This document shows positions 1,660-60,424 of a stretch of DNA of 64,000 bases, piece by piece. The position numbers and the translations under genes are program-made. The stretch spans positions 50,267,355 through 50,331,354 of the forward strand of contig NC_016131.3 in NCBI RefSeq assembly GCF_000005505.3, read 5' to 3'. The notes below the pieces were generated by a model. That model was not told the DNA's origin and made no database searches. It saw only the letters and a program-made list of their open reading frames with translations. The stretch's first letter is position 1, and every line of letters begins with the position of its first letter. This stretch comes from Brachypodium distachyon. Taxonomy: Eukaryota > Streptophyta > Magnoliopsida > Poales > Poaceae.

Positions 1660-2560
1660 ATAAAATCACACCCCGATCAGTGTTACTTAGTGGGGGGAGA
1701 GAGACGTGTAGTTAGAGGAGCAGCGCGCGCGTACATAATTTGCTAGGTATTATTACGAAACAGGAATGACCAATAACTCCAAGATGAACAAACAAATAAA
1801 GTAGCAAAGTTATGGCACTATACCAACCCTCAATTGATGGAATTAACTACCGCTCACTTTCCCTACATAAGATGTGCTAGCTACTCTCTGCCTTAGCAGT
1901 TAGCAGGAAGCACAAACTCCATATCGTTCATTCACATATGAACACATGGGAATGGGTGGAGACGACGACCTAACAGAATATGAGGATGGAAACATAGAAA
2001 TGTGAGACGTCGGAAAAAGAGCACTTGCGCTGCCACTGCGTCCTGGACGAACCAACACCCCGCTGCCCATCGTCGCCTCCATCGATGGGTGGGTGTTCGT
2101 CGCACTCCTCCACTGCCTCCCGGCTAAGGGACTTGTGGAGTGGGTGGCCCATCACACTGATCCACCGCCTCGAGGTTCAGGGCCTCATGTGTCCTTGCTC
2201 GATGGCGCATGCCTACAAGTCCGAGCGGAGTTCCAGGGCATGGCAACATCCGTCAGGGATCGGCACAGAGATCAGCCTCCGCTGGTTGTGAAGGTTAGTG
2301 TTGGGTATGTGCACCAGATCGTAGGAGACATCGGCTTGTGTTTCAAGTTGGATTGGCCGGTAATACGGGTTGCAGCGTTGGGTGCTGATGCCCCCGTCTC
2401 CATCTACGCAAGGAAACCTCCCGGACTCCACCCATTTAGTGTTCGACTAAATGTCCCCCCTCTGGATGTCTACTTTACAAATCTCGATTGGACTGATGCA
2501 TCAAAAGAGCGCAGCTGGGGCTGTCCATTAAGGAGTTACATCGCATGATATCGTAGCAAT
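1660..2560 (+). ncRNA. Candidate 21-PHAS locus 1 (miR2118 site 1995-2016)
   Basis: The 22-nt site at 1995-2016 reads TAGAAATGTGAGACGTCGG then AAA, a left-group variant of the miR2118 target; the predicted cut is 2006|2007. Upstream sequence (AGAGAGACGTGTAGTTAGAG, CCCTCAATTGATGG, CATATCGTTCATTCACA) recurs before the sites at 5796, 9702 and 15108. Downstream sequence is GC-rich and has an open frame of 151 codons (2093-2548) that I do not recognise. The product would be a non-coding precursor cut by a miR2118-programmed Argonaute and made double-stranded by RDR6. Borders are approximate. Confidence 0.6.
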
Positions 2561-2960
2561 GGATATGGTGTGCAGAACCAAGGCTGTGGGAGGAGGCCCT
2601 TGGTCAGTTGGTCTTATTTTTGCTATGATAAGGTGGAAGAGGTTCAGCGTTTCCATGGTCATCCTCTTCTTTCACTTCTTTTAAGCAATAGGCCCTTAGC
2701 GAGGTACCTATCTTGGTTAATTTCATCGCACCAACCTTGTGTTATGACTATGCTTTGAGGGTGTCATCACTTGCAAATAAGTTGAGTTGTTGAGTTGTGA
2801 ATTTTGTGATGTGTGAAATTGAGTATATTCCTTGGTGAAGTGGATTAAAGAACTTTGTTTTTGCGCTAGCTTATGGTTATCCTGTCATCTACCTGACTGG
2901 TTGAGTTTGCTCAGAACGGACCAAAATCGGACGGCAACTATGCAAATACGATCCTGCCAA
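2561..2960. other. Gene-free stretch
   Basis: AT-rich sequence between the first two candidate PHAS loci. I see no coding frame, repeat or site here. Confidence 0.5.
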
Positions 2961-3660
2961 CTTGTTTGAAAAGAAACAATAAATACTACATTATATCTTG
3001 TTTAAAAAGGAACAGTTGCAAAACAGAGAGACCTACCAACCTACCTTACACCGTGCGTAACTACAAATAATGTCGCATATATGCGTACATATTTCCCCAT
3101 CTCCATTTAAGCTCGATGACCTACTAGATGTCGACACCCACCCACTCGTTTTGCTGCTACAAAAATAGCCAAAATAAGAAAACGGACAAACTAATTAAGA
3201 GCCTAAGTCTAAGAGGATGCATGAAAGAATGACAAAATAAAGACTGTCAGAAGGGAATAGGAGACTTGGGGAAAGAGATGGACATTGCTCCGTGCATGGA
3301 GCTATGACGCATGTCCATGCACTGGCAGGACGCTCGCTACATTCGCAGGACCTCAGAAACAGACCTCGGTAGCATACGGCTGCATTGTCGGTAGGATCCT
3401 GAGCCCCATCAAGTCCGCGCGTCCAGTTCAACTTGAGCTGCGCCATTGAGACTCCAGAATCTGACCCGTAGTGATTCTAATTAATCAACTAATGGTGATG
3501 GTTGATGTAAGCGGCCGGTGTGCTCAGGATCACGATTTAAGACCGATTTACTCAAGCGTAGACAATGTTATGCTGTGCTTGTATATTTATATTTTTTTTA
3601 ATCTTCTCCCAGATAATTAAATACCAGCAGTTCGGTACTCAGGTTGCACTGCAACTGCAA
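2960..3660 (+). ncRNA. Candidate 21-PHAS locus 2 (miR2118-like site 3252-3273)
   Basis: The site at 3252-3273 contains GGGAATAGGAGACTTGGGGA. It keeps the 5' GGGAATAGGAGAC half of the motif but has TTGGGG where most copies have ATCNGG, so it is one of the weaker matches. Predicted cut 3263|3264. The context is less conserved than at other loci. Downstream sequence is GC-rich and non-coding up to a solo LTR at 3670. Confidence 0.4.
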
Positions 3661-3669
3661 AACCAAATT

Positions 3670-3958: not shown

Positions 3959-3963
3959 AAATT

Positions 3964-5288: not shown

Positions 5289-5290
5289 TA

Positions 5291-5402: not shown

Positions 5403-5409
5403 TACTATA

Positions 5410-6180
5410 TATGGTATTTGCAAACGGCCTTGCATGTGCAGTCGAAATGATAAAACGATTTTATTAAAATCACACCCTGGAGAGAGACGTGTAATTAGAG
5501 ACAAAGAGGGGAGACACCTAATTTTCTAGGTAGGATCACTGGACTGACCAATAACGCAATCAAATAAAGTAGCTGCAAAGTAATGGCATACGCCAAGCCC
5601 TCAATCGATGGAGCTACGGTTCCCTTCTCGAACATAAGAAGTGCGAGCAACTCCCTGCCTTAGCAGGAAGCACAAACTACCTACACATCCATATCGTTCA
5701 TTCACACAGTGAACACTACTTGCAAGGTTTTTTCCTTTGAAATAAATATGGGGGCATGGGAGGAGACGACCTAAAAACATATGAGCGCGAAAACGTAGAA
5801 ATGTGAGGTGTCGGAAAATGAGCACTTGCATTGACTCTGGACGACGCAGCATCTCTCCTGAACTGATTCGTTCAAGTACTGTTGTCGGTTTTAGAGAAAC
5901 GTCTTCTTGCATTCCACTTTGGACAGTGTCAACTCGTTCTCATTTACCGGGAGCAATTGCGTCTACTCCCCATTTGCTTTGACATATCTATGTTCTGAAC
6001 ACCAGGTCATGTAACATGCAAGCGAGCACATTAGATTAGCTTTAGTGCCGGAAATTAACCTTTGTGAACAGCACTGTAGATGACCATTAGTTTAGAAAAT
6101 ATGCATCAGAGAATTATCTCAAGTAAATAATTAATGTTCCGGGACAACCACGACATTTATATGGTAGGTAGGTACGTGCC
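5410..6180 (+). ncRNA. Candidate 21-PHAS locus 3 (miR2118 site 5796-5817)
   Basis: Site 5796-5817 contains TAGAAATGTGAGGTGTCGG followed by AAA; predicted cut 5807|5808. The 400 bp before it repeats the locus 1 leader (GAGAGACGTGTAATTAGAG, CCTCAATCGATGGAGCTACG, CATATCGTTCATTCACACAG), so loci 1, 3, 5 and 6 form one paralogous subfamily. Downstream is non-coding. Confidence 0.65.
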
Positions 6181-6813
6181 TATAAATATGTATACAACTG
6201 ATTTGTCGAGTGCGTTTTCTGTCTGTTTCATGACTTTTGCCGTCTCTCTTTCTATTATAGTATCAAGTTAGCATAAGCAAGGCACATATAAAGAGTTCTA
6301 AATTTAGGTGCAGGCTGGAAAAGTAGCAAACGAACATGCCTGCACTGCACATTAAGACATGTAAATTGAGAATTGGAGACACCGGGAAGGAAAAGAGATT
6401 GGATGATGAATAGCACACATCGCCGTTATGTCAGTTTGGCATCCGGCATCGGGTCTCTCGCAGATGATGACGTTCTGATTGCGAAGCGGAGGAGATTGCA
6501 GTCACTATCTCCATAGGTCTCTCTGCTTGCAGATCGATCGGTCATCTGCTATATAGAAATCTGGTTCTTGTAATAACTGACAAAACTGAAGAAACAAACG
6601 TTGCTCGTATGTGTGTATGCATTGTGATGCAGAGGCGGCATGTTTCTTAGTCGAGGCGTTGTCTTTGACGACATTTTCCATGAACACAAACTCGCACATC
6701 ACTGCATAATCTTCGCGCAAGTATTTACTCCCTCACCTCACACAAGACTGCTTTAATTGCTACCTTTGTCGAGGTTGACAATGACAATTTTGGCAGATAT
6801 ATATAAGATCAAT
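6180..6813 (+). ncRNA. Candidate 21-PHAS locus 4 (miR2118 site 6367-6388)
   Basis: Site 6367-6388 contains GAGAATTGGAGACACCGGGA; predicted cut 6378|6379. Downstream, 6640-6700 carries CGACATTTTCCATGAACACA, a block also found after the sites at 15108 and 24681. The unit continues as TCGAGGTTGACAATGACAATTT and is interrupted by a mini-CACTA at 6814, then by a retroposon at 7128. Confidence 0.65.
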
Positions 6814-9440: not shown

Positions 9441-9455
9441 AACTCATGTAGCATC

Positions 9456-10045
9456 TGATAGAGTCGACAATCACATGCATGTGTGTTTAAATTACTGATG
9501 GGAATCAACATAAATGAATGCCGTGCCAACCTTCTCCTACATAAGAGATGTGCCAGGTACTCTCCGCCTTCTAGGTTATAGCACAAAGCGCAAACTGATC
9601 CATATATATCGCTCATTCGCACATAAACACTATATATGTCTCTTACAGGCCATTTGTTCCCTTTGAAATAAACATGGCAATGGGAGAAGACCTAAGAAAC
9701 ATAGAAATGTGAGACGTCGGAAAAGGAGGATGCAGTGCTTCTCAAGGCTGCCTTTGATCGTGCAGTGCAACAAGAGCATCGTTCGCGTGGAAGCGTTTTC
9801 TAGCGGTGCCGTCACCTGCCAGCGAGGCATCGACCGCTCGCTTCCATCGTGATTCACGCAGCTATTGTGGTCCGATTCGTATCCTTCCTGTAATTCCTGG
9901 TATTCCTTTTTTTTCATCCTTTTCTTGCCATCATTATTTGGATGGGTTCCCATACTAAAATCTGGACCCACCCGTGTACCAAAAGGCAAAAAGCCAGGTG
10001 GTGCGCTTTCAGTTTTTTCAACCCCTACTATTTACTAATGTGATG
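9456..10045 (+). ncRNA. Candidate 21-PHAS locus 5 (miR2118 site 9702-9723)
   Basis: Site 9702-9723 is identical to the locus 1 site (TAGAAATGTGAGACGTCGG then AAA); predicted cut 9713|9714. The leader CCTACATAAGAGATGTGCCA and the block TTTGAAATAAACATGG match loci 1, 3 and 6. The unit starts right after the retroposon target duplication, so the retroposon separates it from locus 4. Confidence 0.65.
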
Positions 10046-14680: not shown

Positions 14681-15560
14681 ATATCCCTATTACTTAGTGG
14701 AGAGATAGACATGAGTATATAATTAGAGACAGAGATCCTCTCAAAATTAGAGACAGAGAGGAGAGAGACGAGTAATCTGCTAGGTAGGGTCACGAAACAT
14801 GAGTGACCAATAATAACTCCAATATATACTACAGCCGTAATGTAAGAGAGGCCTAAAAGAAAAATAACTCCAATATGAACAAACAAGTAAAGTAGCAAAG
14901 TAATGGCATTAATATGCCAACCCTCAATTGATGGAGCTACGGTTCTCTTCCCCTACATAAGATGTGCGAGCTAGTCTAAGCACAAACTCGATATCGTTCA
15001 TTCACACATTGACTCTATGCACTGACAGTTTTCCCCCCTTTGAAATACAAACATGGGAATGGGAGGGAGAGACGACCTAAGGAAATACGAGCTAGGAGGC
15101 AAAGGCATAGAAATGTGAAACGTCGGAAAAAGAGCACGCGGTGCCACTCTACATAGAGGTACTTGGAGTTTTACTTGGAGGTTTTGGATCCGCATGGGGT
15201 CTCTCTGCTTGCGGATGATGCCGCTCTGATTGCAAAGCCTACCGAGGAGGAGATGGCATTAGTGGAAGGAAAGGATGATTCAAGTCACTTGGAGGTTTTT
15301 ACTCCACAACCTCTTTGATGATGATTCAAGTCGCTTGTGCTCCACTAGTGGTATGGCATTAGTGGAAGGAAAGAAACTTTAGGGTGTTTCAGCAGAAAAC
15401 GAAAGATGTTGCTACTTTGTGTAAGCTAATTGACGAGGATTACAGCCTCCTCTGATTGATCATCTGCTTAAGCAATTCAGTATCCCTAGGAAAAATATTG
15501 AACAAATAGAAATAAGACCATGAAAGCAAGTCATCAAATCACAGTGTGGGTGTGTGTAAA
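14680..15560 (+). ncRNA. Candidate 21-PHAS locus 6 (miR2118 site 15108-15129)
   Basis: Site 15108-15129 contains TAGAAATGTGAAACGTCGG then AAA; predicted cut 15119|15120. The leader repeats loci 1 and 3 (AATTAGAGACAGAGAG, CCCTCAATTGATGGAGCTAC, ATATCGTTCATTCACACA). Downstream, GGCATTAGTGGAAGGAAAG occurs twice (about 15253 and 15354). The CATTTTCCATGAACACA block shared with loci 4 and 8 follows at about 15640. Confidence 0.65.
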
Positions 15561-45380: not shown

Positions 45381-46600
45381 AAGGGCATACGCAATGGTAA
45401 AGTCATTTCACGCTTCCATCCCTCCACGTTATTTAGAGTCAATAAACTATAATGGTCCGACTTTTAAACTGTGTCTAGAGTAATTAATGCTTCCACAGAA
45501 TAAGGTTAGGATTTCTCTTAAAAAACAAAATATTTTCTCTTTGCATGTACGTGAATCCACGGACGATACCTCCATCTACTTTTCCACAAAATAAGGTTAA
45601 TTGCCGCCTTTAATTACAAAAGGAGGTTTCACATGACAATCATTATGAGAAGTAAAGGCCCACCAATCAACAGCCATATATGTATACCTCTTTTTTCTTT
45701 TACTTTCCCAAAGGATGTAGCACCCCTGGCCTCGAGTGCATATATATATACTGCATGCTCCCATGTAGAAAATGCAAACTCAAGCTACCCCAGTTAAAAC
45801 ATATATACTTTTCGTACTGTTGCTATACGCCAAGTAGGTAGATATAGCAAAGAAAGAAAAAGGAAAGCTATTGGCCTAGAGGAAATTAGCTAGAAAAGAA
45901 CAAAGAAAAACAGAGTGTTTCAATTCGGGAATAGGAGGCATCAGGAGAGACGCGTCTACTCCTCCGGCAAACTAGCGAGGTTCATGGCCAATAACTTGCA
46001 CTTTCATGGGTGATGTTGGACGATTGGAAGCAAGGAGAAGCAGGGGCGCAAGTCATAGCAGGAGCGGGCCTGAGGTGAAGTCAACTTTCAGGACATTTGC
46101 AAGAGCGAGATCGCAGGGAGCAACCGCATTAGGGGGCTTGCCGTGTTTGCGTGGGAAGGAGTTTTTTTTTTTCAAGCCTACTGTTTAAATACTGATTCTC
46201 AATTAATTTGTATTTCTCTGTTTCTTAATGTTCGTTCTGCAAAATGTGCACTAATTATTATGCCATTATTCTAGTGTGCACTGCTTCTTGAATGGAATAA
46301 TAGACCCCAGGTGCTACCTTTGCCAAATACTATTTAACCAAGAAAGAACATGACATGTTAGTGTGCACTGCTTCTTCAATGGAATAATAGACCCCATGTG
46401 CTACGTTTGCGAAATACTATTTAACCAAGAAAGAACATGACATGTCTTTGTTGGCTAATCAACTCAAAACATTTACTTTTGAAAATAACTACTGAACTAG
46501 ATGTCGGGCAACACGTCAGTGCCGACCGGTCATGAGAACCCGACATGTGAGCCCCACCGGTTAGGATTCGAGCAAAACCACCAGCATAAGCGGTTTCGGG
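45380..46600 (+). ncRNA. Candidate 21-PHAS locus 15 (miR2118 site 45926-45947)
   Basis: Site 45926-45947 contains CGGGAATAGGAGGCATCAGG; predicted cut 45937|45938. It is 1289 bp after locus 14. After about 46190 it acquires the tail of the right-hand units (AATTTGTATTTCTCTGTTTC, TTTAACCAAGAAAGAACATGACATGT), so it bridges the two unit types. Confidence 0.8.
46272..46445. repeat. 87-bp tandem duplication
   Basis: TAGTGTGCACTGCTTCTTSAATGG through AAGAACATGACATGT occurs at 46272 and again at 46359, nearly identical. It duplicates part of the conserved unit tail in locus 15. Confidence 0.9.
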
Positions 46601-47390
46601 GTTAAGTGAGATGGGCTGTCACAAAAGATGTGGTTCTGCAAACGGTATTGCGTTACCAGTGGCTCCGCGATAGAGCTGCACAAGGCCACAATTGAAAAAG
46701 TATTATTTGACGGTATATATACCAAGCAACTGATAAAAGTTGGTTCTTTCAGCAACTTTGATTATACATCAATCCACAGGAAAATGAATGCAAGAAAGAC
46801 AGAAAGAAGGAGCATTGTTAGCTTGAGAATAGTAGACATCTGGAACAGAACGCTTAGTAAGCAGAGGAGGCTTTGTAGTCCTTCATGTGTTGCCCGGGCA
46901 CGACATTGTTCCCTGCTCGCATATGGGATCAGGAAAGCTCAGGTACTATATCCCTGCAGTGTCCGCGTCTGGAGAAAAAATTATACAAAACCATCACAAT
47001 TGTGACAACAAACATGTGAGCCTTCTTGTCAGGTTTTGCATCAAAATGTTGTCAACTGAATTATCAGTGAGCAAGAGTACCTATGTGCTCAAAACGGTGA
47101 TCATTTGTAATTTTTTTTAAAAAGATAGTTTTCCTAGACTTGAGAGTGAGCGAGAAGTGAGAAGGATGCTGGCATGCTGTTGTGCTTGGTCAAACGACTT
47201 TGGGCTTAGTTTGTATTTATTTTTCAGATTATTTTCCCGCGGAACAATGGTCACATGATTATTCTAATGTGCACTGTTTTCCTTCACCAAATAATATACT
47301 GACATGCCTCCATGTGTTTCGTTTAAGAAATATATTTACTATCAAGGGATAACATAAGATGCATGTTTTTGTTCACTCATCGAATTTGAA
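46600..47390 (+). ncRNA. Candidate 21-PHAS locus 16 (miR2118 site 46824-46845)
   Basis: Site 46824-46845 contains GAGAATAGTAGACATCTGGA; predicted cut 46835|46836. TATATATACC lies about 110 nt upstream, then GAAAGACAGAAAGAAGGAGC. After the site, ACGCTTAGTAAGCAGAGGAGG and GTTGCCCGGGCACGACATTG are shared with loci 20, 21, 23 and 24. Confidence 0.8.
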
Positions 47391-48060
47391 CCGACCAGAA
47401 TATGATTTTGACATCTGAAAGATCGCAATAACCGTGGAACAAGTACAAAGTAAGAAATATCACATTGATCGATACCGCCATTACATACAAAGATCTTCCG
47501 TTCGAAAATATCTCACAAAGCAGAATTGAACCGAGATAAATATATTCAGCAACAACAGCATGGGTGACCAGTAAATGTATGGTACATATATATGCATGCT
47601 TCTTCGATTTATTCCCTCCTACACGAATACAGCTGATAGCAAGCGCAATACACGAAAGAAGAGTCAAACAAAAAAAAAAAAAGCAACATTAACATGAGAA
47701 TAGAAGACATCAGGAACAAACGGCCTAGTATCCGGGATCGGCACATATGCCACCCGAGGAACCTTCCTAGCCTATGTGTTTCTCCAGCCCGACAACATAT
47801 GCAAAATCATGTGCGATCCTGATGGCGATTAGATCCAAGACAGAACAGAACGATACGGTACCTCCGGACACAAAATACTACTCCGTATCTCTTTCATGTT
47901 AATTCTGCTTGGGATAGTCCTTCAAGGAAAAGCTGCAGGATGCGTGGCATGATTCTAGTTCGTCAGATTGCTCGAGAATCCCAAGGAATCAATATGGTCG
48001 TATGGACATGAGCATGGCCGCATGCATAGGATGGGGGAGAGCTTAAACATATCTTTGTTG
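47390..48060 (+). ncRNA. Candidate 21-PHAS locus 17 (miR2118 site 47695-47716)
   Basis: Site 47695-47716 contains GAGAATAGAAGACATCAGGA; predicted cut 47706|47707. The upstream promoter-like block (AAAGTAAGAAATATCACATTG, GAGATAAATATATTCAGCAAC, GTACATATATATGC) is present, with the TATA-like run about 105 nt before the site. A 12-A run lies just before the site. Confidence 0.75.
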
Positions 48061-49230
48061 GCTCATCGAATTTGAAATAATCATACTCCCGATCCATATT
48101 ACTTGTGGAAGATCGAAGGGAGTAATGCATTTGAACGATCAGAATAATTGTTGAACAGGTCCAAAATAAGAAACATCACATCATATTGAAGACTGCCACT
48201 ACATAAAGTGAACATCATCTGGGCAAAAATATCTCAGAAAATTGATCCGAGATAAAAATAAAAAATTCACAGTATTGCAGTACTGAAACGAACAATTACT
48301 TGTGAAACAACGGAGAGGTGTGTTTCTCACACTAGATCGACATGGCTAACTATTTATACACGACTGCCCAATGGGTGTGTTTCTCACCATGCTTCATGAG
48401 TCGTCAGGGAGTTTCAGCACATTGGTTCTCTCCCTGCACCAACTGTTACAAAAAATTAAGAAACAACGGAGAGGTTAGCTTGAGAATGGGAGATATCAGG
48501 AAGCAAATGCTTGGTAGAAAACTAAGGAACTGTTCTTTGATAAGCTCAAGAAGTTAAGGCATGAGCAAGATTTCTGCCGAAAAGTCGTTCTGAGTTATAC
48601 AGTTGTACACACCTTCGAACTACATCGTGAAACTCAGCCCACAATCTGTGGGATTGACTTGCCACGTATGTGGATAATGCCAAAAATGGAAGTAGCTCAT
48701 GGCTTGATGGGCCAGCCCAAAAACAAAGGAGAAGAGCTAGCAAGTGAATTAGAAGTTTACTTTGAAGGATTACAATAGAGCTTTTAGTTTTATTGAATAT
48801 ATTCGTTGTTTTGTGTTCGTTCATATATCGATTTTTTGTACTACTTGTTTCATCAATCAATAAAGCCACGTCGTTGCTTAAAAAAAAATTGTACTCGGCT
48901 GCGAGCGCGTTTCTGCCATCTTGTTCTGCTATAGGCCACAACCCCTCACATGCATGCCATCCACCAGCAACGTGTATGCAAAATGCCACCATTTCTACGT
49001 TAGCAGCTTTTGCAAGCACTTCTTAGTGACCTCTCACTTTGGAATCTTTCGTCTGGAGGGTCGACCGTGGTGGCCACTGGCCACAGCACGTTTGGATTTT
49101 GTTTTTGTTTTTCTAGTTTTAGGGTTCTTCTTGCGCAAAACATGGGATAATTGTCATGCCATTATTCTAACGTGTACTGTTTCCCTTTAGCAGATAATAG
49201 ACTGAAATCTGTCCATTTGTTTGGTTTTAA
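48060..49230 (+). ncRNA. Candidate 21-PHAS locus 18 (miR2118 site 48481-48502)
   Basis: Site 48481-48502 contains GAGAATGGGAGATATCAGGA; predicted cut 48492|48493; 18 of 22 positions match the TAGGAATGGGAGGCATC-type complement. TATTTATACA is about 125 nt upstream. The leader CTTCATGAGTCGTCAGGGAGT resembles locus 26. Downstream is non-coding. Confidence 0.75.
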
Positions 49231-50238
49231 AAATATATTAATTATCCAAGGCATCCTCATAGGTCTATGTTGGCACATTGAATTTGAAACGATGAGAAGA
49301 AAAAACTGACATTTGGAAAATCCGAATAACTGTTGAACAAGTACAGAGTAAAAACATCAACGTTGGATACTGCCATTATATACGACGAATATTTCTTAGT
49401 GAAAAAAGTATCTCAAAAAAATAGGTTGGAAATAAATATTTTATCCACCGCAAGATATAATGATTAATAATGGATGATATATATACACATTCCACCACCG
49501 ATCAAGTGCAATCTCTCCATACTTCACGAGTTAGTGACCCTCTTGGCTCCTTTGTTTGATTCTCTCCTACACCAATCTGTAGCAAAAGAGGTGCAAGAAA
49601 GACGACAGAAAAAAAGAGCCATGGTATATAGCTTGAGAATTGGAGACATTGGGAACACAAGGATTAGGACCCGAAAGAGGCACTGTACTCTAACGGATGT
49701 TGCTCCGGCGTGAGAATGTTCTCTACACGCTGCTCCCATCATGGACGCTCCTCCATGTGGTTCTCATTGCATGTTTTCCTTCCAAGTGGCCAGCTTCATG
49801 ATACAAGATGCGACGATGCAATCCGGCGACCTACGATCCAAACTGGCCACTTGGAAGTGACTGGCGTCTCTTCATACTTACCGTCACCATGCATGCATGA
49901 GGCCACCTATCTGACATAAGCGGGATTTCTGCTTAAAATTCATCCTCTGAACTGCCCTGGGATCCGAGCCTATATTCTCTGATTGATCTCCTTGTAACCG
50001 TGCTTCTCGATTAATTTGTATTTCTCTGTTTCTTATTGTTCGTTCTCCAAAATGTGCAATAACTATTATGTCATTACTCTAGTGTGCACTGCTTCTCCAA
50101 TGGAATAATAGATCGAGATGCCCCAGGTGCTATGTTTACAGAATATTATTTAACCAAGAAATTAAGAACATGACATGTCTTTGTTGGCTCACCAACTTGA
50201 AACATTTACCTTTGAAAATAACTATGGACAAGATAGTA
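49230..50238 (+). ncRNA. Candidate 21-PHAS locus 19 (miR2118 site 49634-49655)
   Basis: Site 49634-49655 contains GAGAATTGGAGACATTGGGA; predicted cut 49645|49646. TATATATACACATTCCACC about 150 nt upstream, then CCGATCAAGTGCAATCTCTCC and AAAGACGACAGAAAAAAAGAG-type purines. Tail blocks AATTTGTATTTCTCTGTTTC and AAGAACATGACATGTCTTTG complete the unit. Confidence 0.8.
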
Positions 50239-50876: not shown

Positions 50877-51990
50877 CAAAATAAGAAACATCACATTGGA
50901 GAACACCAATATATACGAAGATCTTTCCTTCAAAAATATCTCACAATATTGACTAGCTTGAGATAAATATTTTCAACAACCACAACATGAAGTTGAATAT
51001 TTGACAATATATATACTATACCATCATGGCACCACCCGATCAAATCGGTTCTTTAATTCCATGGTTCACAGTTTCATGATGGCAAAAGCAGTTCAAGAAA
51101 GATAGACATAAAGAGTAATGTTAGCTTGAGAATAGGGGACATCTGGAACAGAAGGCTTAGTAAGCACAAGAAGGCTTTGTGCGTGGTTCACGTTTTGCCC
51201 GGGCATGACATCAATCCCTCATCGCCGGCGGCATCATGAAAGCTCCTGCTTGCGAGTTCAGCTTTGTGGTTGTAGTCTAACGTGTTGTGCTCAGGCGAGA
51301 CAATATTCCCCTTGCCGGCAACACGATAAAAGCTCGTGTGCTCTTGGATAAAGAAAAATCTCCAATGAAGCCATGTACCTCTATGCCTCTCCACGTTCTG
51401 CACCAGAATATCGGGTTTCCCAAGCAAATTTTTGGGCGATCTTTCTTTGATCTCCTTGCAGTGGAGCTTCTGGAGGGCCGACAATGGCAGGCAGATCAAC
51501 TTTGCCACTTGTGAGAGACCCTTTGAGCTCAATTTGTATTCCTCTGTTTTCTGGAGTTCCATCTGCAAAACGTGCAATAATTATCATGTCATTATCCTAG
51601 CGTACAAATGGTTGCCCTAATCAAATTATAGTCTGAAATGTCTCCAGGTGTTACGTTCAGAAAGTATTATTAAACCAAGAAATTAAGAACATGACATGTA
51701 TGTTGGCTCATCAAATTTCAAGGAACACTCATAATATATTTCTGACATTTGCGAACCAGCCCATCCAGTTTTAAGTCTCCGACTTAACATGAGTGCTCGT
51801 ATTTTCCTGAATTTATTCCAGGACCAAATCGGCGTTGTGCTTTCAGTGGGCCTATGGTGACTTCGCCAATATCAAGATGATGTGTCATAGGGGTAGAGTG
51901 TGCGTACGTACGTTCATAGGGGTGAGTGTCTGTGCGTGCTTGTGAGCGTCTGTGTCTATACTGTATTTCCTAAAAAAAAATCTGAAATTT
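50877..51990 (+). ncRNA. Candidate 21-PHAS locus 20 (miR2118 site 51127-51148)
   Basis: Site 51127-51148 contains GAGAATAGGGGACATCTGGA; predicted cut 51138|51139. Full right-group architecture: AAGAAACATCACATTGGAGA, TTGACAATATATATAC about 115 nt upstream, CACAGTTTCATGATGGC, CAAGAAAGATAGACATAAAG, the site, then AGAAGGCTTAGTAAGCACAA. Closely related to locus 23. Confidence 0.82.
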
Positions 51991-53554
51991 GAGAATAACC
52001 GTTACAGATACAACAACAAAAAAATTCCTCACATCGGAGACCGCCATTAAATATGAAAATCTTCGACACAAAAATATCTCACAATATTAATCTGAGATAA
52101 ATATTTCAACGGCCACAACATGGAGCTTGAATATTGAACAATATATATGCACCACCACCTGCGGTGGCGGAACCGGAAACTGAAGAAAGATGGTGCTATA
52201 TTTGTGAGTCTTCCATACTTATGAGTTAGCTAGATAGCTAATAGTTTCTCTTTTAAAACACTCTTGATGGACCGGTGATACCAAATGGGTAGCACCACCC
52301 CTCACCACCTGATGACCTGATCAAGCAAGATCTTTCCATGGTCCACCCTTTGCGTGATAATTAGTGAGCCTCGGCGACTTGGATTGATTTTCTCGTGCAG
52401 CACCAGTAGATAGTAAAAAAGCAATGAAAGAAAGACGGAAAGAAGAGCAAGGATAGCTTTGACCTTTGAGAATAGGAGACATCCGGAACGAGGCGCTTAG
52501 CAGATACATGAGGCTTTGTGCGCGGTTTGTGTGTTGCCCGGCCACGGCATCGTGCTCTACAGCCACGCTAACAGCAGTCCCTGCAAGCAGGCCTGTCGAT
52601 GGACATGAGCGAGGTGCACCATCGCTCGGGGCCTCCCAAAAAATATTGCCCCCAAATCGCAATTAGTTAGATAGGATTAAGTCAAACAAAAAAATTGTGA
52701 CAACCAGTCAATCACGCACGGCCATGACCCAGAGGCCAGGGGCATATACAGCTGTATGTCACAATCACACGGAGGAAAAAAAGAAATCCGTCTGTTCGAC
52801 TTCGTCGGCAGTCTTCAAACTGAAGCTGATCTCCAGTCACCCTGCGTCCGTCTGTCTTTACACGGTTGCGTCCAAACCGATCAAATACCCAAATACCACT
52901 CTGGTCTAATAATTCAATTAAAGATCGATTCAATTAATTCCATTTTGCAGGTCTAATCAATTGATCGGTTTTGTGAGACTAATGGTACGCGACACTATTA
53001 CACTCTAGTTCGCCAAGCTATTGTCCGAGAGACATGATCCTGTGTTCTTCTTTCATTTTCAGTCATAATTTCAAAATCAAAATTTTCAATTTCACTCTGA
53101 GGGCCCCAATTCCTGGAGACGGCCCTGTCTAGAAGCAGACAATGTAGGTCGATTTCCTTCTGACTTGAGCTTTAAGATGTGTGGTAGGATTTTAGGTCAT
53201 CGAGGTGTTGAAGTGATGAATAACGCAGATAAATACAAATACTGACAGATTACAACATATGACAATCATATAAAAAAACAAGAGAGGGAGAAAAATTATG
53301 TGTTTCTCTAATTCTTTGAGACTGAGCTCAAAGCATTTGTATTTCTCTGTTCCTAGCTTAGAGTTATTTCGGCAAAATGTGCAATAATTATTATTGCCAT
53401 TATTCTAGTAGGCTGAGATGCCTCTATGTGTTCCGTTTAAAATATATATTATTTAACCAAGAAAAGAACATGACATGTCTTTAGTGGCTCACTGAACTTG
53501 AAACAATTAGAATATATTTTTGAGATTTGAAAATAACTATTGAACTAGATTGTA
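51990..53554 (+). ncRNA. Candidate 21-PHAS locus 21 (miR2118 site 52467-52488)
   Basis: Site 52467-52488 contains GAGAATAGGAGACATCCGGA; predicted cut 52478|52479. CAATATATATGCACCACCACC is about 325 nt upstream because of extra sequence in the leader (52160-52320). The site is followed by GGCGCTTAGCAGATACATGAGG, as at locus 24. The tail at 53150-53540 matches 56210-56540. Confidence 0.8.
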
Positions 53555-53782: not shown

Positions 53783-54740
53783 TGCAAAATAAGAAACGTC
53801 ACACTGGAGAACACAAATGTAAACAAGGATCTTCCATTAAAAAATTTCTCACAATATTGATCCAAGATAAATATTTGGCTCATCAAAACTTAAGAAACAA
53901 TCCAAATAAATTTTTGACATATTTGAAAATAAATTACCATTGAAAATGTACAAAATAAGAAACCTCACAGCGAAGACCACCATTAAATGTAAAGATCTTC
54001 CACGCAACAAAATATCTCACAATATTAATCGGAGATAAATATTTCAACAACCACAAGTCCACAACATGGAGCTTGAATATTTGACAATAATACACCACCA
54101 AACTGTAAGTCGCGGTTTCTCCATGGTGCACACCATTCGCTTCAGTGAGCCTTGGCAGCTTTGATCTAAAAGGAAGAGCAATGTTTCTTTTGAGAATAGG
54201 AGGCACCTGGAACATGACACTAAGGAAGCACACCAAGCTTTGTGCCTTGTTTATGTGTTGTCCGAGCATGACATCTTGCCCTATAGCGACGGTGCCCTGA
54301 AAATCTCCAAACAATTCCTGTACTGCTACTGTTTCGAAAAAAACTGTCTCGGGAGTTCAGCTTTAATGTATGTGCTAGGATTTCTGGTCGTCGGATTGAT
54401 TTCCCACGACTTCGACAATGCCGATATATTCATTCAAAAACACAGGAGAGGAGAGGGAGAGTGAGCACTGAGCAGAGTGGGCATGTTGTGCTTGGGGGCG
54501 AGCTCCTAGTTGCCGTCTCCGACCACCACCGCGCATGCCGCCTAGTTGCAGCACTGAGGGCAGCCGCCGCACGCTCCAACCACGTTGTGCCTTTGTACCT
54601 CTCCACGATCTGCCACACCATGCATGTTCTTGGATTGTCTCGTCGCATCTTTCATGATTTCAAGAAATAAATAATTACGGTAGATAGAGCAAGTGAAGTG
54701 ACAGTTGAGGCATGCATACGAGGATATATTTTATGACAGA
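53783..54740 (+). ncRNA. Candidate 21-PHAS locus 22 (miR2118 site 54191-54212), with PPR fragment
   Basis: Site 54191-54212 contains GAGAATAGGAGGCACCTGGA; predicted cut 54202|54203. Leader TTGACAATAATACACCACC about 105 nt upstream, AAAAGGAAGAGCAATG, site. About 265 nt after the cut the transcript carries a broken copy of the 5' end of the PPR gene (54468-54588), so phased siRNAs from cycles 13-19 would resemble PPR coding sequence. Paralogous to locus 25. Confidence 0.78.
54468..54588 (+). pseudogene. Fragment of the PPR gene 5' end inside a PHAS unit
   Basis: Matches 61612-61745. GTGGGCATGTTGTGCTTGGG, then GTTGCCGTCTCCGA, GCGCATGCCGCC and GAGGGCAGCCGCCGC align with the PPR start. Reading from ATG at 54483 gives MLC-GAS, LPSP and HAA in the same order as the PPR N terminus, but with in-frame stops. 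It has no coding capacity and is embedded downstream of a miR2118 site in the same orientation as the gene. Confidence 0.85.
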
Positions 54741-54867: not shown

Positions 54868-55790
54868 TACAAGATACACTAAGAAACATCACATAGGAGA
54901 ACACCATATTATATATGATCTTCCCTTCAAAAATATATCACAATATTGACTTGATATAAATATTTTCAACAACCACAGTATGAGGCTGGATATTTGATAC
55001 TAATATATATACCACCATGGGACCACCGGCCCGCTCAAGTTGGTTCTCTTTCCATGGTTCACGGTTTTATGTGTTAGTGAGCCTCAACAACTTTGATTGA
55101 TTCTTTCGTACTGCAATTGATGGGCAAAAGCAGTTCAAAAGAAAGATAGAAATAAAGGGTAATGTTAGCTTGAGAATAGGGAACATCTGGAACAGAAGGC
55201 TTAGTAAGCACAAGAGGCTTTGTGCGCGGTTCACGTTTATCCCAGGCATGACACTATTCCCCCGTCGCCGGCAGCATCATGAAAGCTCCTGCTTGCATGG
55301 TCCTTTAGAGTTCAGCCTTATGGTTTTAGTCTAACATGTGTTGCTCGGGCGAGACAATATTTCCCTCGCTGGCGATACAATGATAGCTCGTGTGGTCTTG
55401 GCTGGACAGAGATCTCCCATGAAGCCATGTACCTCTCGAAATTTCCTTTCAGATCCCGGGACTTACGTACCTATTGTGCTTTCTGGAGGGTCGACCATGG
55501 CGGGTAGAGCACCTGTGTGAGAGTCGACCCTTGGCTTAATTTGCATTCCTCTGTTTTCTGGAGTTCCATCTGCAAAACGTACGTGCAATAATTATCACTA
55601 TCATGTTATTATCCTAACGTGCGCTGCTTGTCCTAATCAAATAACAATCTGAAATGCCTCCAGGTGTTACGTTCAGAAAGTATTGTTTAACCAAGAAATT
55701 AAGAACATGACATGTATGTTGGCTCATCAAATTTTAAGAAGCACTCAGAGAATGTATTTTTGACATTTGAAAATAACTGTTGAACAGGAA
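54868..55790 (+). ncRNA. Candidate 21-PHAS locus 23 (miR2118 site 55171-55192)
   Basis: Site 55171-55192 contains GAGAATAGGGAACATCTGGA; predicted cut 55182|55183. Nearly the same unit as locus 20: CACAGTATGAGGCTGGATAT, TAATATATATACCACCATGG about 165 nt upstream, AAGAAAGATAGAAATAAAGG, site, AGAAGGCTTAGTAAGCACAA, then GCATGACACTATTCCCCCGT and CGGCAGCATCATGAAAGCTC. Confidence 0.82.
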
Positions 55791-56547
55791 CAAAATAAGA
55801 AACCTCACATCAGAGACCACCATGAAATTTGAAGATATATATTCAATGCAAAATATCTCACAATATTAATCCGAGATATATATTTCAACAACCACAACAT
55901 GGAGCTTGAATATTTGACAATATATATACACCTCGACATACATGAACAAGTCTGTTCTCTCCATGGTCCACCCCTTCTCGTGTTAAATAGTTAGCCTTGG
56001 CGACTTCGATTGATTTTCTTGTGCACCACCAATAGAGAGGAAAAGAGCAATGGAAGAAAGACCGAAAGAAACAGCAAGGATAGCTTTGAGAATAGGAGAC
56101 ATCTGGAGTGATGCGTTTAGCAGATACGAGAAGCTTTGTGCGCGGTTCGTGCATTGCCCGGCCATGTCATTATGTCCTAGAACAATGCTAACAGGAGGAT
56201 CTACAAGCAGAGAATGTAGGTCGATTTCCTTCTGACTTCAGCTTTAAGATGTGTGCTAGGATTTTCCGTCATCACACTGCAGAAGTGACGAATAATGCAA
56301 ATAAATAAAAATACTGGCACAGATTACATATTATGACAACTATACAAAAAAAACAATAGGGAGAAAATTCTATGTTTCTCTATTTCTATGAGAATGAGCT
56401 CAAATCATTTGTACTTCTCTGTTTCTTTGAGTTTTTTTTCCTGCAAAAGGTGCAATAATTATTATGTCATTATTCTAGTAGTGTGATTTGCTTCCCTAAT
56501 CGAAAAACAGACTGAGATGCGTCTATGTGTTCCGTTAAAAAAAAATA
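55790..56547 (+). ncRNA. Candidate 21-PHAS locus 24 (miR2118 site 56087-56108)
   Basis: Site 56087-56108 contains GAGAATAGGAGACATCTGGA with G at the last position; predicted cut 56098|56099. TATATATACACC about 165 nt upstream, GAAGAAAGACCGAAAGAAAC before the site, GATGCGTTTAGCAGATACG after. Paralogous to locus 21 over more than 1 kb. Confidence 0.82.
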
Positions 56548-56672: not shown

Positions 56673-57540
56673 TACAAAATAGAGAACACAAATGTAAACA
56701 AAGATCTTCCATTCAAAAACATCTCACAATATTTGACCCGAGATAAATATTTCAAGCAACCACTGTTTGCTCTAATCAAATAATAGACTGAAATGTCTCC
56801 ATGTTTAGGCTCAGAAAATGTTATTTAACCAAGAAATTAAGAATATGACATATCTTTGCTGGCTCATCAAATTTCAAGAAACAATCAGAATATATTTTTG
56901 ACATTTGAAAATAAATAACTCTTGAACAAGTACAAAATAAGAAACTTTGCGTCGAAGACCGCCATTAAATAAGAAAACCTTCGACGCAAAAAATCTCACA
57001 ACATTGACCCGAGATAAATGTATCAACAACCACAACATGAAGCTTGAATATTTGATAATATATATACCACCACCTGTAGGTTTTGGTTTTTCCATGGTGC
57101 ACCACCGTTACGTGAGAGTGAGCCTTGGCAACTTTTGATTCACGTCCACCAATCGATAGCAAAAGCAATCCAAGAAAGACAAAAGGAAAGAAGAAGCATT
57201 GTTTTTTGGAATAGGAGACATCTGGAAAATGACACTTGGTAATCACAGGAAGGCTTGTGCTTTTTTTCTGATGTGTTGTTGTCCGGGGACGATCGACGTC
57301 TTGCCCGATAGCCGCCAGATCGCCGAACAGTTGGTGCCATGCGATTCGGCTTTAATGTACGTGCTACTAGTTACTAGTATGATTTTTGGCTGTCGGACTG
57401 TTCGCATGTAGCAGAACTGAATAAGTAATGGACTCCAGCAGCTTACAGAATAATCACAATTAATTCACAGAAAAACACAGCAGCTGAGTGGGCATGCTGT
57501 GCTTGATGGCGAGCTGAGTGGTATAAATGTACCCAGCAAC
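56673..57540 (+). ncRNA. Candidate 21-PHAS locus 25 (miR2118 site 57206-57227), with PPR fragment
   Basis: Site 57206-57227 contains TGGAATAGGAGACATCTGGA; predicted cut 57217|57218; 18 of 22 positions match the miR2118 complement, among the best in the window. GATAATATATATACCACCACC is about 145 nt upstream and CAAGAAAGACAAAAGGAAAG precedes the site. A PPR-derived piece lies at 57482-57521, 264 nt after the cut. Confidence 0.82.
57482..57521 (+). pseudogene. Short fragment of the PPR gene 5' end
   Basis: AGCTGAGTGGGCATGCTGTG then CTTGATGGCGAGC matches 61609-61650, spanning the PPR start codon. It breaks off after 40 bp. It lies at the same distance from its site as the fragment in locus 22. 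Confidence 0.75.
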
Positions 57541-58010
57541 GAGCCAACGACCCTACAAAAGGCTAAAAAATTTATACGTTCCGGCAATGTTTCATGAGTC
57601 GTCAATGAGTTTCAACTTTCAACACACCGATCCAGTGATCCACTCATGCACGGAGGTTAGCTTGAGAATAGGAGATATCGGGAAGCGAATGCCTAGGTTG
57701 ATCCGAAAACTTCGTGCTCCCAGAAAGTTTCTTGCTCCGGCGCCACCCCGTTCTCGGCTCGCTGACGGCGAAACCGAAGCTGGAGTAGAAGCGGAGGTGT
57801 CAGCAAGAGTTCCGGTGAAACATTGTTCTGAGTCGTTATATTGTTGTACTCAGCTTTGAAACTCACCTGGGGCTGAATCTGAGTCTGTCAAGGTTGCTTC
57901 TTTGTTGCCCTTTTCTTCGGTAAGATTAACTTTGAAATCCATGGATCTGATGCTCTTTCAGTTGTTGGGATTGGCTTGTCTCATGGAGAATCACAAAAAA
58001 TACATGTTCT
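57540..58010 (+). ncRNA. Candidate 21-PHAS locus 26 (miR2118 site 57663-57684)
   Basis: Site 57663-57684 contains GAGAATAGGAGATATCGGGA; predicted cut 57674|57675. It is only 457 bp after the previous site, the shortest spacing in the array, so loci 25 and 26 could share a transcript. The leader TTTCATGAGTCGTCAATGAG matches locus 18. Downstream is GC-richer and non-coding. Confidence 0.75.
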
Positions 58011-58661
58011 CATGCTTCACGAGTTAGTGAGCCTCGACACCCTACATGAGTGCGTAGCAAAAGCAGACCAGAAAGACAGAAACAAAGAGCAATTCATGTT
58101 AGCTTGAGAACAGGAGACGTCAGGAACAACAGAACGGTTAGCACGCACGCACAGGAGGCCTGCGGGTACCAGCTAAATTTGCTTTGTAATATTTCAGACT
58201 CTGGCACTCTGCTGTTCCAGTGTATTATAGATGATACATCAGCTTCGGTGTATCATAGAACGAAAAAAGTTTATTTTGTATTCTTCTCATGTTAGAGTTA
58301 TTTCTACAAAACATGCGAATCATCATGTACATTATTCTAGTGTGACTTTTTGTCCTGATCAAATAATAGACTGAAATGTCTCCATGTTTCTCATTTAGAA
58401 AATATTGTTTAACTAAGAAAGAACATGCCATGTCTTTATTGGCTCATCAAATTTGCAACAGTCAGATAATATATTTTTGACATTTGAAAATAACTTTTGA
58501 ACAAGTACAAATAAGAAACATCACATTACAGACTGCCATTATTACCAAGATATTTCATGCAAAAATAATTACAATGTTAATGTGAGATATAAATATTTGA
58601 ACAACCACGATATGGAATTGAATATATATACCACCATCATATACATGTACCACCGCCGATC
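58010..58661 (+). ncRNA. Candidate 21-PHAS locus 27 (miR2118 site 58105-58126)
   Basis: Site 58105-58126 contains GAGAACAGGAGACGTCAGGA; predicted cut 58116|58117. CTTCACGAGTTAGTGAGCCT and CAGAAAGACAGAAACAAAGA precede it. The tail from 58290 (TTCTAGTGTGAC, TAGACTGAAATGTCTCC, TTTAACTAAGAAAGAACATG) runs into the promoter-like block of locus 28, which is cut by a solo LTR at 58662. Confidence 0.75.
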
Positions 58662-60006
58662 TGTGAGATCGAGATAGGCAATCAGAGGGGGGGGTGAATG
58701 ATTGCGCGGAAGCAAATTAAAACTTTTCCCAAAAGTTCAAACCCTAAAACACCTTTCTGTCCGTGATAGTAAAACAGCCGTAACTTTTGATTGGATGAAC
58801 CAAAAAATACGTATGAGTATGTAAAAAAAGGTATTGAAATTATCTAACCAACGCAAGAAGAATCAGCTTAATCGGACGTACCAATCAAAAGATATGATCA
58901 AAATAGTAACAGCTGACAGAAAGTTACGAGGATTAATCTAAAACCAATTTCGAGGAATAACAAGAAAAATGAATTAATCGCAATCTTCTCTTGATCTCGT
59001 GATAAACCTGCAACAAAGTATTATGAACTTGTGATGAACCTGCACCAAAGTGTTAGAAAGATCTAGCACGAAGATTTCACGAAGATCCGAGAAGAACAGA
59101 GATGACACTGCCAACGAATCTCTTTATTGCAACGATGTCGATCGATTACAAAAGATGCAACCATGCATCCAAGAACTCTCCAAGAATTGATCTAGATCCA
59201 AAGCTCTGAGTTCCCTCATGTACTTGCTAAAACCCTAGTTAGGATTCCCTCTATTTATAAGAGAAAATTCGCAACCCTAAACCGAGTTCGAATCCAACAC
59301 GAACTCCTCTGTCCCGGTCGGTATTTTGTCCGTGGGGCCCGCATACGACCTCGGATTGAGATGACTCCAAAAGAAAAGTTGTTCGTCTCGACGACGCGCA
59401 CAACTTTCATGTGGACCACTTTTCCATCCGACACCATTTTGATGACAGTACTGTTTAATTTTTAAACAGCTCTCATTCAGTCACGGCTGGATCTACATAT
59501 CTTCACGTCGATGCCACTCCATGCCATCAACTCTTCTTGTGATGTTTTCAAAACTCGATCATCACGTATCGAATATCTCCAATACCGTATATATCCGGTA
59601 TAAACAACGTATGACAAACCGGTGCCCTCCCGGATCATCGTAGCCTTCACTTCCATTGTTTCTTCGCACGAACATCCCGCATGACCTTGATCCTCGACCT
59701 CAGCTTCTCCCAAGCTTCGTCCATCGATCCCGTCATCGACCACGTTCCACTAGCTCTGGCAACACCTGAAAGCGAACACACAAATAACCAGTACGAGCAC
59801 AAGTCCACGACTTGACTCAGGGTAAGTTTCACACAACTCACGTCATGTTTTCACATAAGAAACTAATGGATCAGCACACCACTAGCAAAGCACTAAGTCC
59901 AAACAAGATACATGTCATCACATAAATATCCATATTATTCAAAGTATCCACATCAATGTTTCGTCTAAAACACTTGCCAATGTTACAAATCACCTATGAT
60001 TTCACA
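58662..60006. mobile_element. Solo LTR, 1345 bp
   Basis: Starts TGTGAGATCGAGATAGG and ends ATGATTTCACA, flanked by perfect CGATC (58657-58661, 60007-60011). Removing it rejoins CCACCGCCGATCAAGTCGGTTC, the intact leader of other PHAS units, confirming the insertion. No internal coding region. Confidence 0.9.
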
Positions 60007-60424
60007 CGATCAAGTCGGTTCTTTCCACGGTGCACCTTTTAAGGCTCGTTCGGTTGAGTAAATCCATGCAGGGATTGGACGGGATTGAGGAGAAATTGAA
60101 TGGCAATCTCATCAATCCCCTTTGATCCCCTTCGGGCTGGGCATAACCGAAGTAGGCCTTAGGTGTGAGCTTCGACAACTTTGGTTGATTCTCTTAGTAC
60201 ACCCATCAATAGCAGAAGCAATGCAAGAAAGACACGGATGCTAAGTCGAGAATGTGAGACATACAGGAATGGGCTTTACCTTGATTGCAATTTTTCTCTG
60301 ACTTCAGCTGTATAAGATGTGTGTTAGGATTTTAAGTCATACAGATCGCCTTGCCGTTGCCGAGTGATGATAACGCCGATAAATATAAATACCGGCAGAT
60401 TACAGCATATGCCAATCATCATTA
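60007..60424 (+). ncRNA. Degenerate 21-PHAS locus 28 (site 60246-60269)
   Basis: 60246-60269 contains CGAGAATGTGAGACATACAGG then AA: the motif with one extra base in the ATCAGG part, which would bulge opposite the miRNA seed side. The leader (AGTCGGTTCTTTCCACGGTG, CAAGAAAGACACGG) and tail (GACTTCAGCTGTATAAGATG) match loci 21 and 24. The unit is broken by a solo LTR, a MITE and a retroposon, and is probably dead. Confidence 0.45.
60042..60158. mobile_element. Tourist-like MITE, 117 bp
   Basis: AGGCTCGTTCGGTT at the left and the complement GGCCTACTTCGGTT at the right are inverted ends; TTA flanks both sides (60039-60041, 60159-60161), as for PIF/Harbinger-derived MITEs. It interrupts the leader of locus 28. 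Confidence 0.6.

What the first reader, a model, noticed from the sequence alone, without database searches (positions are those of the whole stretch)
1995..60269. Very large one-directional cluster of miR2118-type target sites: a 21-nt phasiRNA (PHAS) locus array
A 22-nt motif (core GGAGRCATCNGGAA) recurs at 1995, 3252, 5796, 6367, 9702, 15108, 17992, 24681, 38953, 40155, 41529, 42188, 43631, 44637, 45926, 46824, 47695, 48481, 49634, 51127, 52467, 54191, 55171, 56087, 57206, 57663, 58105 and 60246. All are on the plus strand. The motif is the complement of the grass miR2118 family, which triggers reproductive 21-nt phasiRNAs from non-coding transcripts. ORF-based annotation would call this DNA empty.
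Basis: partly seen in the sequence, partly recalled or inferred. Interest (0 to 1): 0.95.

Follow-up and report, generated by a model that had tools for sequence, protein, structure and literature searches.

The report
Grass anther small-RNA (21-PHAS) gene array
A stretch of grass chromosome with few ordinary genes carries dozens of target sites for one microRNA family, and the DNA after the sites is patterned in 21-base steps, as expected if it is chopped into small RNAs used in the developing anther; this is a known kind of locus, but the pattern can be read from the DNA alone.

Summary
The genome (271.3 Mb; contig sizes fit Brachypodium distachyon, from recall) has at least 17 MIR2118 precursors by Rfam RF01911. 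The array runs past both window ends, over about 111 kb of C1.

Conservation peaks over the 22-nt site. Counted from the predicted cut, the DNA favours C at siRNA position 1 and G at position 19 (the antisense partner's 5' C), at period 21 only. This repeats in 32 held-out loci, there mainly as G19, and is absent at 14 MIR2118 loci and 164 control anchors.

This is a 21-PHAS supercluster of the known grass kind; 288 miR2118-initiated loci are published for Brachypodium (PMC4053937). Added here: the DNA-level phase signature, and a preference of this array for an unusual miR2118 variant (U at nt 10). No small-RNA or degradome data could be consulted.

The parts
38953..38974 (+). miR2118 site; dense core of the array begins (19 sites, median spacing about 1.06 kb)
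   Evidence: penalty 2.5; register rank 6 of 21; spacing
40155..40176 (+). miR2118 site
   Evidence: penalty 2.5; register rank 1 of 21
41529..41550 (+). miR2118 site, no register signal
   Evidence: penalty 3.0; rank 21
42188..42209 (+). miR2118 site
   Evidence: penalty 2.5; rank 4
43631..43652 (+). miR2118 site; local duplicate family with 44637 and 45926, no match elsewhere in the genome search
   Evidence: penalty 2.0; rank 1; genome search
44637..44658 (+). miR2118 site
   Evidence: penalty 3.0; rank 1
45926..45947 (+). miR2118 site
   Evidence: penalty 2.0; rank 1
46824..46845 (+). miR2118 site
   Evidence: penalty 3.5; rank 3
47695..47716 (+). miR2118 site, no register signal
   Evidence: penalty 2.5; rank 21
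48481..48502 (+). miR2118 site
   Evidence: penalty 2.5; rank 1
49634..49655 (+). miR2118 site
   Evidence: penalty 3.5; rank 2
51127..51148 (+). miR2118 site, no register signal
   Evidence: penalty 3.0; rank 19
52467..52488 (+). miR2118 site; a dispersed repeat starts about 120 nt after the site start
   Evidence: penalty 2.5; rank 4; genome search
54191..54212 (+). miR2118 site
   Evidence: penalty 3.5; rank 1
55171..55192 (+). miR2118 site
   Evidence: penalty 4.0; rank 2
56087..56108 (+). miR2118 site
   Evidence: penalty 3.0; rank 1
57206..57227 (+). miR2118 site
   Evidence: penalty 2.0; rank 1
57663..57684 (+). miR2118 site
   Evidence: penalty 2.5; rank 3
58105..58126 (+). miR2118 site, end of the dense core
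   Evidence: penalty 3.0; rank 8
1995..2016 (+). miR2118 site, sparser left part; member of a local family
   Evidence: penalty 3.5; rank 11; relatives of the site region only at C1:50.25-50.28 Mb
3252..3273 (+). miR2118 site
   Evidence: penalty 4.0; rank 7
5796..5817 (+). miR2118 site, weak register
   Evidence: penalty 3.0; rank 15
6367..6388 (+). miR2118 site
   Evidence: penalty 4.0; rank 1
9702..9723 (+). miR2118 site
   Evidence: penalty 3.5; rank 1
15108..15129 (+). miR2118 site
   Evidence: penalty 4.5; rank 4
17992..18013 (+). miR2118 site
   Evidence: penalty 2.5; rank 1
24681..24702 (+). miR2118 site
   Evidence: penalty 2.5; rank 6
60246..60269 (+). doubtful site: needs a 1-nt bulge
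   Evidence: no ungapped match at penalty <=5.5; sequence
25750..37030 (.). CACTA-type DNA transposon region within the gap between sites 24681 and 38953; right end not resolved; not part of the PHAS system
   Evidence: CACTA start at 25750, no well-matched right terminus or target duplication found; subterminal CCAGTGGCGG inverted repeats; Transpos_assoc domain

Best explanation
This is a 21-nt reproductive PHAS supercluster. Inferred chain: each unit of about 1 kb is transcribed from the plus strand as a non-coding RNA; a 22-nt miR2118 cuts it between bases 12 and 13 of the site; RDR6 makes the 3' fragment double-stranded; DCL4 dices it in 21-nt steps from the cut; the products are sorted into a 5'-C-preferring Argonaute of the AGO5/MEL1 type in premeiotic anthers. 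Shown here: the sites, the trigger genes in the same genome, conservation peaking at the site, and a 21-nt register in the downstream DNA with C at siRNA position 1 and G at position 19. Inferred: transcription, cutting, dicing and loading.
For: 27 of 28 sites pair at penalty <=5; 38 plus against 3 minus sites in 104 kb, shuffled sets 2.3. At least 17 MIR2118 precursors by RF01911; 13 of the 30 loci folded are hairpins at >=16 pairs and z < -3. Information peaks over the 22 nt (26.9 bits in 38 array loci; far flank about 0.1 bit per column). Register statistic (C at position 1 plus G at position 19), cycles 1-8, 53 loci: period 21 gives 0.712, no other period from 15 to 30 above 0.552; at period 21 the other 20 phases give at most 0.526. 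Cluster-weighted p: 0.0007 for the 27 window loci (0.02 for the 19 core loci alone, 0.008 for the 8 left loci), 0.0005 for 11 flank loci, 0.007 for 15 loci elsewhere. Position 1 C z +5.7, position 19 G z +5.2. Held-out 32 loci: 0.637, rank 1 of 21, z 4.5, p 0.0003 (the limit of 3000 draws), period 21 best. Controls: 14 MIR2118 loci 0.348, rank 21; 164 GGAGR anchors 0.477, rank 17. Rice MEL1 binds 5'-C 21-nt phasiRNAs, and position-19 G is explained by the duplex (PMC7305157 section 10). 288 miR2118a/b-initiated phased loci reported in Brachypodium from PARE data (PMC4053937 section 13).
Against: No small-RNA, degradome or transcript data were available. The signature was first noticed in array loci; only the held-out set is a clean test. 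An upstream bump also appeared in the first 53 loci (cycles -6 to -2, cluster-weighted 0.552, p 0.0025); for the 8 left window sites it is as strong as the downstream signal (0.636, p 0.01, rank 1). It did not repeat in the held-out set (cycles -5 to -2, 0.367, rank 18). In the held-out set position 19 G is strong (z +4.9) but position 1 C weak (+1.7), and cycles 5-8 alone rank 2. Four new array loci at the right end give rank 2, p 0.18, for cycles 1-8 and rank 14 for cycles 1-12. In the window, 4 of 27 loci have register rank 15 or worse (5796, 41529, 47695, 51127). The signal fades after about 8-10 cycles.
Confidence: 0.93

Rival explanations
1. The motif is part of a transposon or other dispersed repeat.
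For: A dispersed repeat lies downstream of site 52467 (query 219-701, about 80% identity on several chromosomes), a short one in the unit of site 1995 (query 521-599), and a CACTA element lies inside the array.
Against: In the three units (of 27) searched against the whole genome, matches that cover the site lie only in this array. The tool warns that such counts are lower bounds and that very common words are skipped. The 53 loci tested fall into 33 clusters, and conservation falls off outside the 22 nt.
Confidence: 0.02
2. Sites are remnants of NLR P-loop codons, the eudicot-type miR2118/482 targets, from decayed resistance genes.
For: An NLR gene lies in the window on the minus strand; miR2118 and relatives are known to target the NB domain of NLR genes in other plants (stated in PMC4053937).
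Against: Bases after the site show no conserved P-loop continuation: in 47 loci outside the array offsets 22-26 hold 0.1 bit or less. No site at penalty <=5.5 lies on the NLR's coding strand within the gene. None of 8 further ORFs matched Pfam.
Confidence: 0.02
3. The array is a relic: units were PHAS loci, but many are no longer made into phasiRNAs.
For: 4 of 27 window loci have register rank 15 or worse, and 60246 is degenerate. Local copies are diverged (about 65-85% identity).
Against: Sites hold at penalty 2-4.5 in 27 of 28 places, and 11 of 27 loci show the register at rank 1 (ties counted) on their own.
Confidence: 0.08
4. The units encode MIR2118-like hairpins rather than targets.
For: A precursor carries the complement of such a site on its other strand.
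Against: No Rfam match at gathering score in the window or in the 40 kb of flank. The one window site folded on the miRNA strand (24681, L037) gives z 0.0 with 11 pairs. True MIR2118 loci lack the register.
Confidence: 0.01

Closest known systems
Grass reproductive 21-PHAS loci triggered by miR2118 (rice, maize, wheat, Brachypodium), including the rice superclusters of Johnson et al. 2009 (recalled; cited in papers seen here, text not seen)
   Same: 22-nt miR2118 site, non-coding units, clustering, conservation centred on the site, 21-nt register, 5'-C bias, trigger family in clusters (here C6 and C5 as far as found; rice chromosomes 4 and 11, PMC7305157 passages)
   Different: No structural difference seen. 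Here the register is read from DNA without small-RNA data, and the array prefers a U10 variant of miR2118.
Eudicot miR482/2118-NLR phasiRNA loci
   Same: Related trigger microRNA, 21-nt secondary siRNAs
   Different: Targets there are codons of protein-coding NLR genes; here the sites show no P-loop continuation and are not in the nearby NLR.
Grass 24-PHAS loci (miR2275)
   Same: Clustered non-coding anther loci
   Different: Other trigger and 24-nt step; the statistic used here gives 0.507 at period 24 against 0.712 at 21.

Membership tests
Grass reproductive 21-PHAS locus | 22-nt miR2118 complementary site | tested here: met
   27 of 28 listed sites at penalty <=5
Grass reproductive 21-PHAS locus | miR2118 genes in the same genome | tested here: met
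   >=17 RF01911 precursors at C6:13.92-14.00 Mb and C5:7.47 Mb, in loci fetched by a pattern search; the genome-wide family search did not complete
Grass reproductive 21-PHAS locus | Non-coding units, clustered, conservation centred on the site | tested here: met
   array loci also share weaker conservation next to the site (7.8 bits over -30..-1, 6.8 bits over 22..40; 2.2 and 1.4 bits in 47 outside loci), which fits local duplication
Grass reproductive 21-PHAS locus | 21-nt register from the predicted cut | tested here: met
   At DNA level only: held-out
Grass reproductive 21-PHAS locus | Phased 21-nt siRNAs in premeiotic anthers and degradome cut at the site | not testable with these tools
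Grass reproductive 21-PHAS locus | RDR6/DCL4 dependence and AGO5/MEL1 loading | not testable with these tools
   Inferred from the C1/G19 signature and PMC7305157 section 10
Eudicot-type NLR target of miR2118 | Site encodes the NB-ARC P-loop | tested here: not met
   No conserved continuation after the site; no Pfam domain in 8 ORFs. Site-spanning frames were not each compared with NB-ARC.
Transposon-borne repeat | Site lies inside a repeat found genome-wide | tested here: not met
   (3 of 27 units searched)
24-PHAS locus | 24-nt step | tested here: not met
   Period scan anchored on the miR2118 cut; miR2275 sites were not searched

The most novel reading that the evidence does not exclude
Two linked claims. 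First, the genome at miR2118 loci is under selection in a 21-nt register, most clearly for a 5' C on the antisense siRNA (G at position 19), so individual phasiRNAs and their Argonaute sorting matter for fitness although the loci look unconserved; PHAS loci and their register could then be called from DNA alone. Second, this array has co-evolved with one variant of miR2118 (U at nt 10, C6:13995720), which gives a matched pair next to the slicing bond, so different superclusters may answer to different family members.
Probability: 0.45. Interest if true: 0.65.

Novelty: new member of a known kind. Interest (0 to 1): 0.42.

Why it matters
Why grasses make thousands of weakly conserved phasiRNAs in anthers is an open question. 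A phase-locked bias written in the DNA, found without small-RNA data, suggests that which strand and which 5' base each phasiRNA has is worth keeping. It also offers a way to find such loci in genomes that have no anther small-RNA data. The locus itself is an ordinary, though large, example of a known system important for male fertility.

Tried and rejected
Rejected: transposon origin, NLR P-loop remnants, hairpin genes at the sites, other periods. 'Largest cluster in the genome' is not claimed. With a pattern open to A or G opposite nt 10, 18 of 60 non-MIR matches with <=1 mismatch lie in the array. With the C10-type pattern at <=2 mismatches, only one of the matches listed (100 of the 101 counted) lies in the window, and other places are richer (13 at C3:1.85-2.11 Mb).

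Led nowhere: upstream phasing (in the first 53 loci, not in the held-out set); the RF01911 search of the whole genome (seven tries, never answered); Rfam on the window (0 matches). I found no statement in print of a DNA-level register. That rests on listings of searches, one section of PMC7305157 and one of PMC4053937, and passages of PMC7305157, PMC4053937, PMC6822278, PMC7057497, PMC7960677, PMC7695705 and PMC7902584. The likeliest paper, Patel et al. 2018, is not in those listings; I know it by its title in reference lists and by recall. Dropped before counts: 60246, 16597 and the two weak minus hits from all register tests; C4:15935359 from the held-out set (not fetched, close neighbour of a fetched locus); the 14 MIR2118 loci among the 74 matches. 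L010 fails the hairpin cut (z -2.7) but passes Rfam.
Full report
Where it is. The window is C1:50,267,355-50,331,354 of a 271,293,937-base genome in 11 contigs. Contig lengths of 75.07, 59.13, 59.64, 48.59 and 28.63 Mb fit Brachypodium distachyon chromosomes 1-5. That identification rests on recalled sizes.

The observation. The 14-nt core is exact at only two plus places, but the full 22 nt is strongly over-represented: with a recalled consensus, 28 plus and 1 minus places have <=5 mismatches, against a mean of 0.25 in 40 Markov sequences scanned on one strand. I then used the genome's own microRNAs. Of 30 loci folded, 13 are hairpins (>=16 pairs, z below -3). Rfam RF01911 finds at least 17 distinct precursors, on C6:13.92-14.00 Mb and C5:7.47 Mb. 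With the pairing rule of PMC4053937 (mismatch 1, G:U 0.5, limit 5), 27 of the 28 sites pass. Over the window plus 40 kb of flank there are 38 plus and 3 minus sites, against a mean of 2.3 for column-shuffled sets and 4 for mirror-read miRNAs. Site 60246 needs a bulge and is doubtful. The array continues on both sides, from C1:50,250,660 to at least 50,361,887, with one well-paired inverted site at 50,333,207. Beyond 50,351,354 only four 521-base pieces were read.

What surrounds it. The dense core has 19 sites at a median spacing of about 1.06 kb between 38.9 and 58.1 kb. Its two reading frames of at least 150 codons have no Pfam match. Elsewhere the window has an NLR gene on the minus strand (18.9-23.6 kb), an LRR fragment of F-box type (12.4-13.3 kb), a CACTA-type transposon region (about 25.75-37.0 kb, right end unresolved) and a DYW-type PPR gene (61.5-63.8 kb). 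The transposon takes up most of the gap between sites 24681 and 38953.

Units. Aligned on the site, information peaks over the 22 nt (26.9 bits in 38 array loci) against about 0.1 bit per column in the far flanks. Array loci also share weaker conservation just beside the site (7.8 bits over -30..-1 and 6.8 bits over 22..40), which outside loci mostly lack (2.2 and 1.4 bits). Some units are local duplicates at about 65-85% identity, so I read this as shared descent. Searched against the whole genome, three units (of 27) have site-covering matches only in this array. A dispersed repeat begins about 120 nt after the start of site 52467, and a short one lies in the unit of site 1995. These results argue against a transposon origin of the motif; the tool warns that its counts are lower bounds.

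A phase signature in the DNA. If miR2118 cuts between bases 12 and 13 of the site, plus-strand siRNAs begin at offset 12+21k (0-based), and the partner strand's 5' base is the complement of offset 12+21k+18. Rice MEL1 prefers 5' C, and the position-19 G of anther phasiRNAs is explained by the duplex (PMC7305157 section 10). I noticed that columns 51, 54 and 72 of the alignment fit this and then tested it. For 53 loci and cycles 1-8, the summed frequency of C at position 1 and G at position 19 is 0.712 at period 21; the other periods from 15 to 30 reach at most 0.552. At period 21, other phases reach at most 0.526. With duplicates down-weighted and registers randomised by cluster, p is 0.0007 for the 27 window loci (0.02 for the 19 core loci, 0.008 for the 8 left loci), 0.0005 for 11 flank loci and 0.007 for 15 loci elsewhere. 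In the map of four bases by 21 positions, the largest departures are C at 1 (+5.7), G at 19 (+5.2), A at 19 (-5.2) and A at 1 (-4.7); the next are T at 1 (-3.2) and T at 2 (+3.1). Two controls show nothing: 14 MIR2118 loci 0.348 (rank 21 of 21) and 164 GGAGR anchors 0.477 (rank 17). A third does not come out clean: upstream of the site (cycles -6 to -2) the first 53 loci also show a bump (0.552, p 0.0025), and for the 8 left window sites it is as strong as the downstream signal.

Held-out test. Because the signature was noticed in these loci, I fetched 32 further target-like loci outside the array (32 of the 42 non-array places; 9 were already held, 1 was not fetched). They give 0.637, rank 1 of 21, z 4.5, p 0.0003 (limit of 3000 draws), and period 21 is again best. 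The upstream bump is absent there (cycles -5 to -2, 0.367, rank 18). Position 19 G is strong (+4.9), position 1 C weak (+1.7), and cycles 5-8 alone rank second. So the general signal is mainly a 5' C on the antisense siRNA; the first set, mostly array loci, shows both. Four more array loci at the right end give rank 2, p 0.18, for cycles 1-8 and rank 14 for cycles 1-12. In 47 outside loci, two of the better conserved columns after the site are offsets 33 (C) and 51 (G), the first positions the model predicts. DNA cannot know the register except through its products, so I read this as selection on the siRNAs. That step is inference.

Which trigger. In the array 34 of 42 sites have A opposite microRNA position 10, next to the slicing bond; 16 of 47 outside loci do (15 of those 47 came from a pattern favouring G). 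In the list, whose pattern is open to both, the figures are 16 of 18 in the array and 16 of 42 elsewhere (Fisher p 0.0005). Of 16 distinct mature sequences compared, only that of the precursor at C6:13995720 has U at position 10; at least one Rfam precursor (L013:753-917) was not read for its mature sequence. The U10 member is strictly best for 22, tied for 7 and worse for 13 of 42 array sites, and best for 12 of 47 outside; its mean advantage in the array is small by penalty (0.12) and 1.1 kcal by duplex energy, against -0.69 and -3.6 outside. Whether this variant is expressed is not known here.

Mechanism and status. The best reading is a grass 21-PHAS supercluster feeding a 5'-C Argonaute in premeiotic anthers (confidence 0.93). 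U is not enriched at position 1 (z -3.2), so the array looks like the germ-cell (MEL1) class rather than the U-rich anther-wall class of PMC7305157. [quoted passage not shown] Whether this interval is on that list could not be checked, because supplementary files could not be looked up. The rice superclusters of Johnson et al. 2009 and the composition study of Patel et al. 2018 are known to me by recall and by citation in papers seen; neither text was seen.

Novelty and interest. As a locus, this is a new member, possibly already catalogued, of a known kind. The added value is that the 21-nt register is legible in genome sequence and repeats in held-out loci, and the hint of a preferred trigger variant. 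Interest 0.42.

Noticed in passing
window 25750-37030: CACTA-type DNA transposon region with subterminal CCAGTGGCGG repeats and a Transpos_assoc domain, inside the PHAS array; the right end was not resolved.
   Followed up: partly
window 18924-23571, minus strand: NLR gene (Rx_N, NB-ARC, winged helix, LRR) inside the array, with no miR2118 site at penalty <=5.5 on its coding strand.
   Followed up: partly
window 61463-63832, plus strand: 789-codon reading frame with PPR repeats, E motif and DYW deaminase domain, just beyond the dense core.
   Followed up: no
window 12402-13340, plus strand: LRR fragment of F-box/FBD type.
   Followed up: no
L010:2016-2131 (C6, among the MIR2118 genes): Rfam MIR5070 precursor match on both strands inside the MIR2118 gene cluster.
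   Followed up: no
G000:C6:13995720-13995741 (L025): MIR2118 precursor whose mature sequence has U at position 10, the only one among 16 distinct sequences compared; it fits this array better than other loci.
   Followed up: partly
G000:C6:13.92-14.00 Mb and C5:7.469 Mb: MIR2118 precursors in tandem at about 234-276 nt spacing, which would fit the stem-sharing arrangement described in PMC4053937.
   Followed up: partly
window about 52586-53067: Dispersed repeat (about 80% identity on several chromosomes) just downstream of site 52467.
   Followed up: partly
array sites, offsets -40 to -11: A- and purine-rich tract just upstream of the array's miR2118 sites, weaker at loci elsewhere; meaning unknown.
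   Followed up: no
first 53 loci, cycles -6 to -2 upstream of the site: In-register bump upstream of the cut that did not repeat in 32 held-out loci; unexplained.
   Followed up: partly
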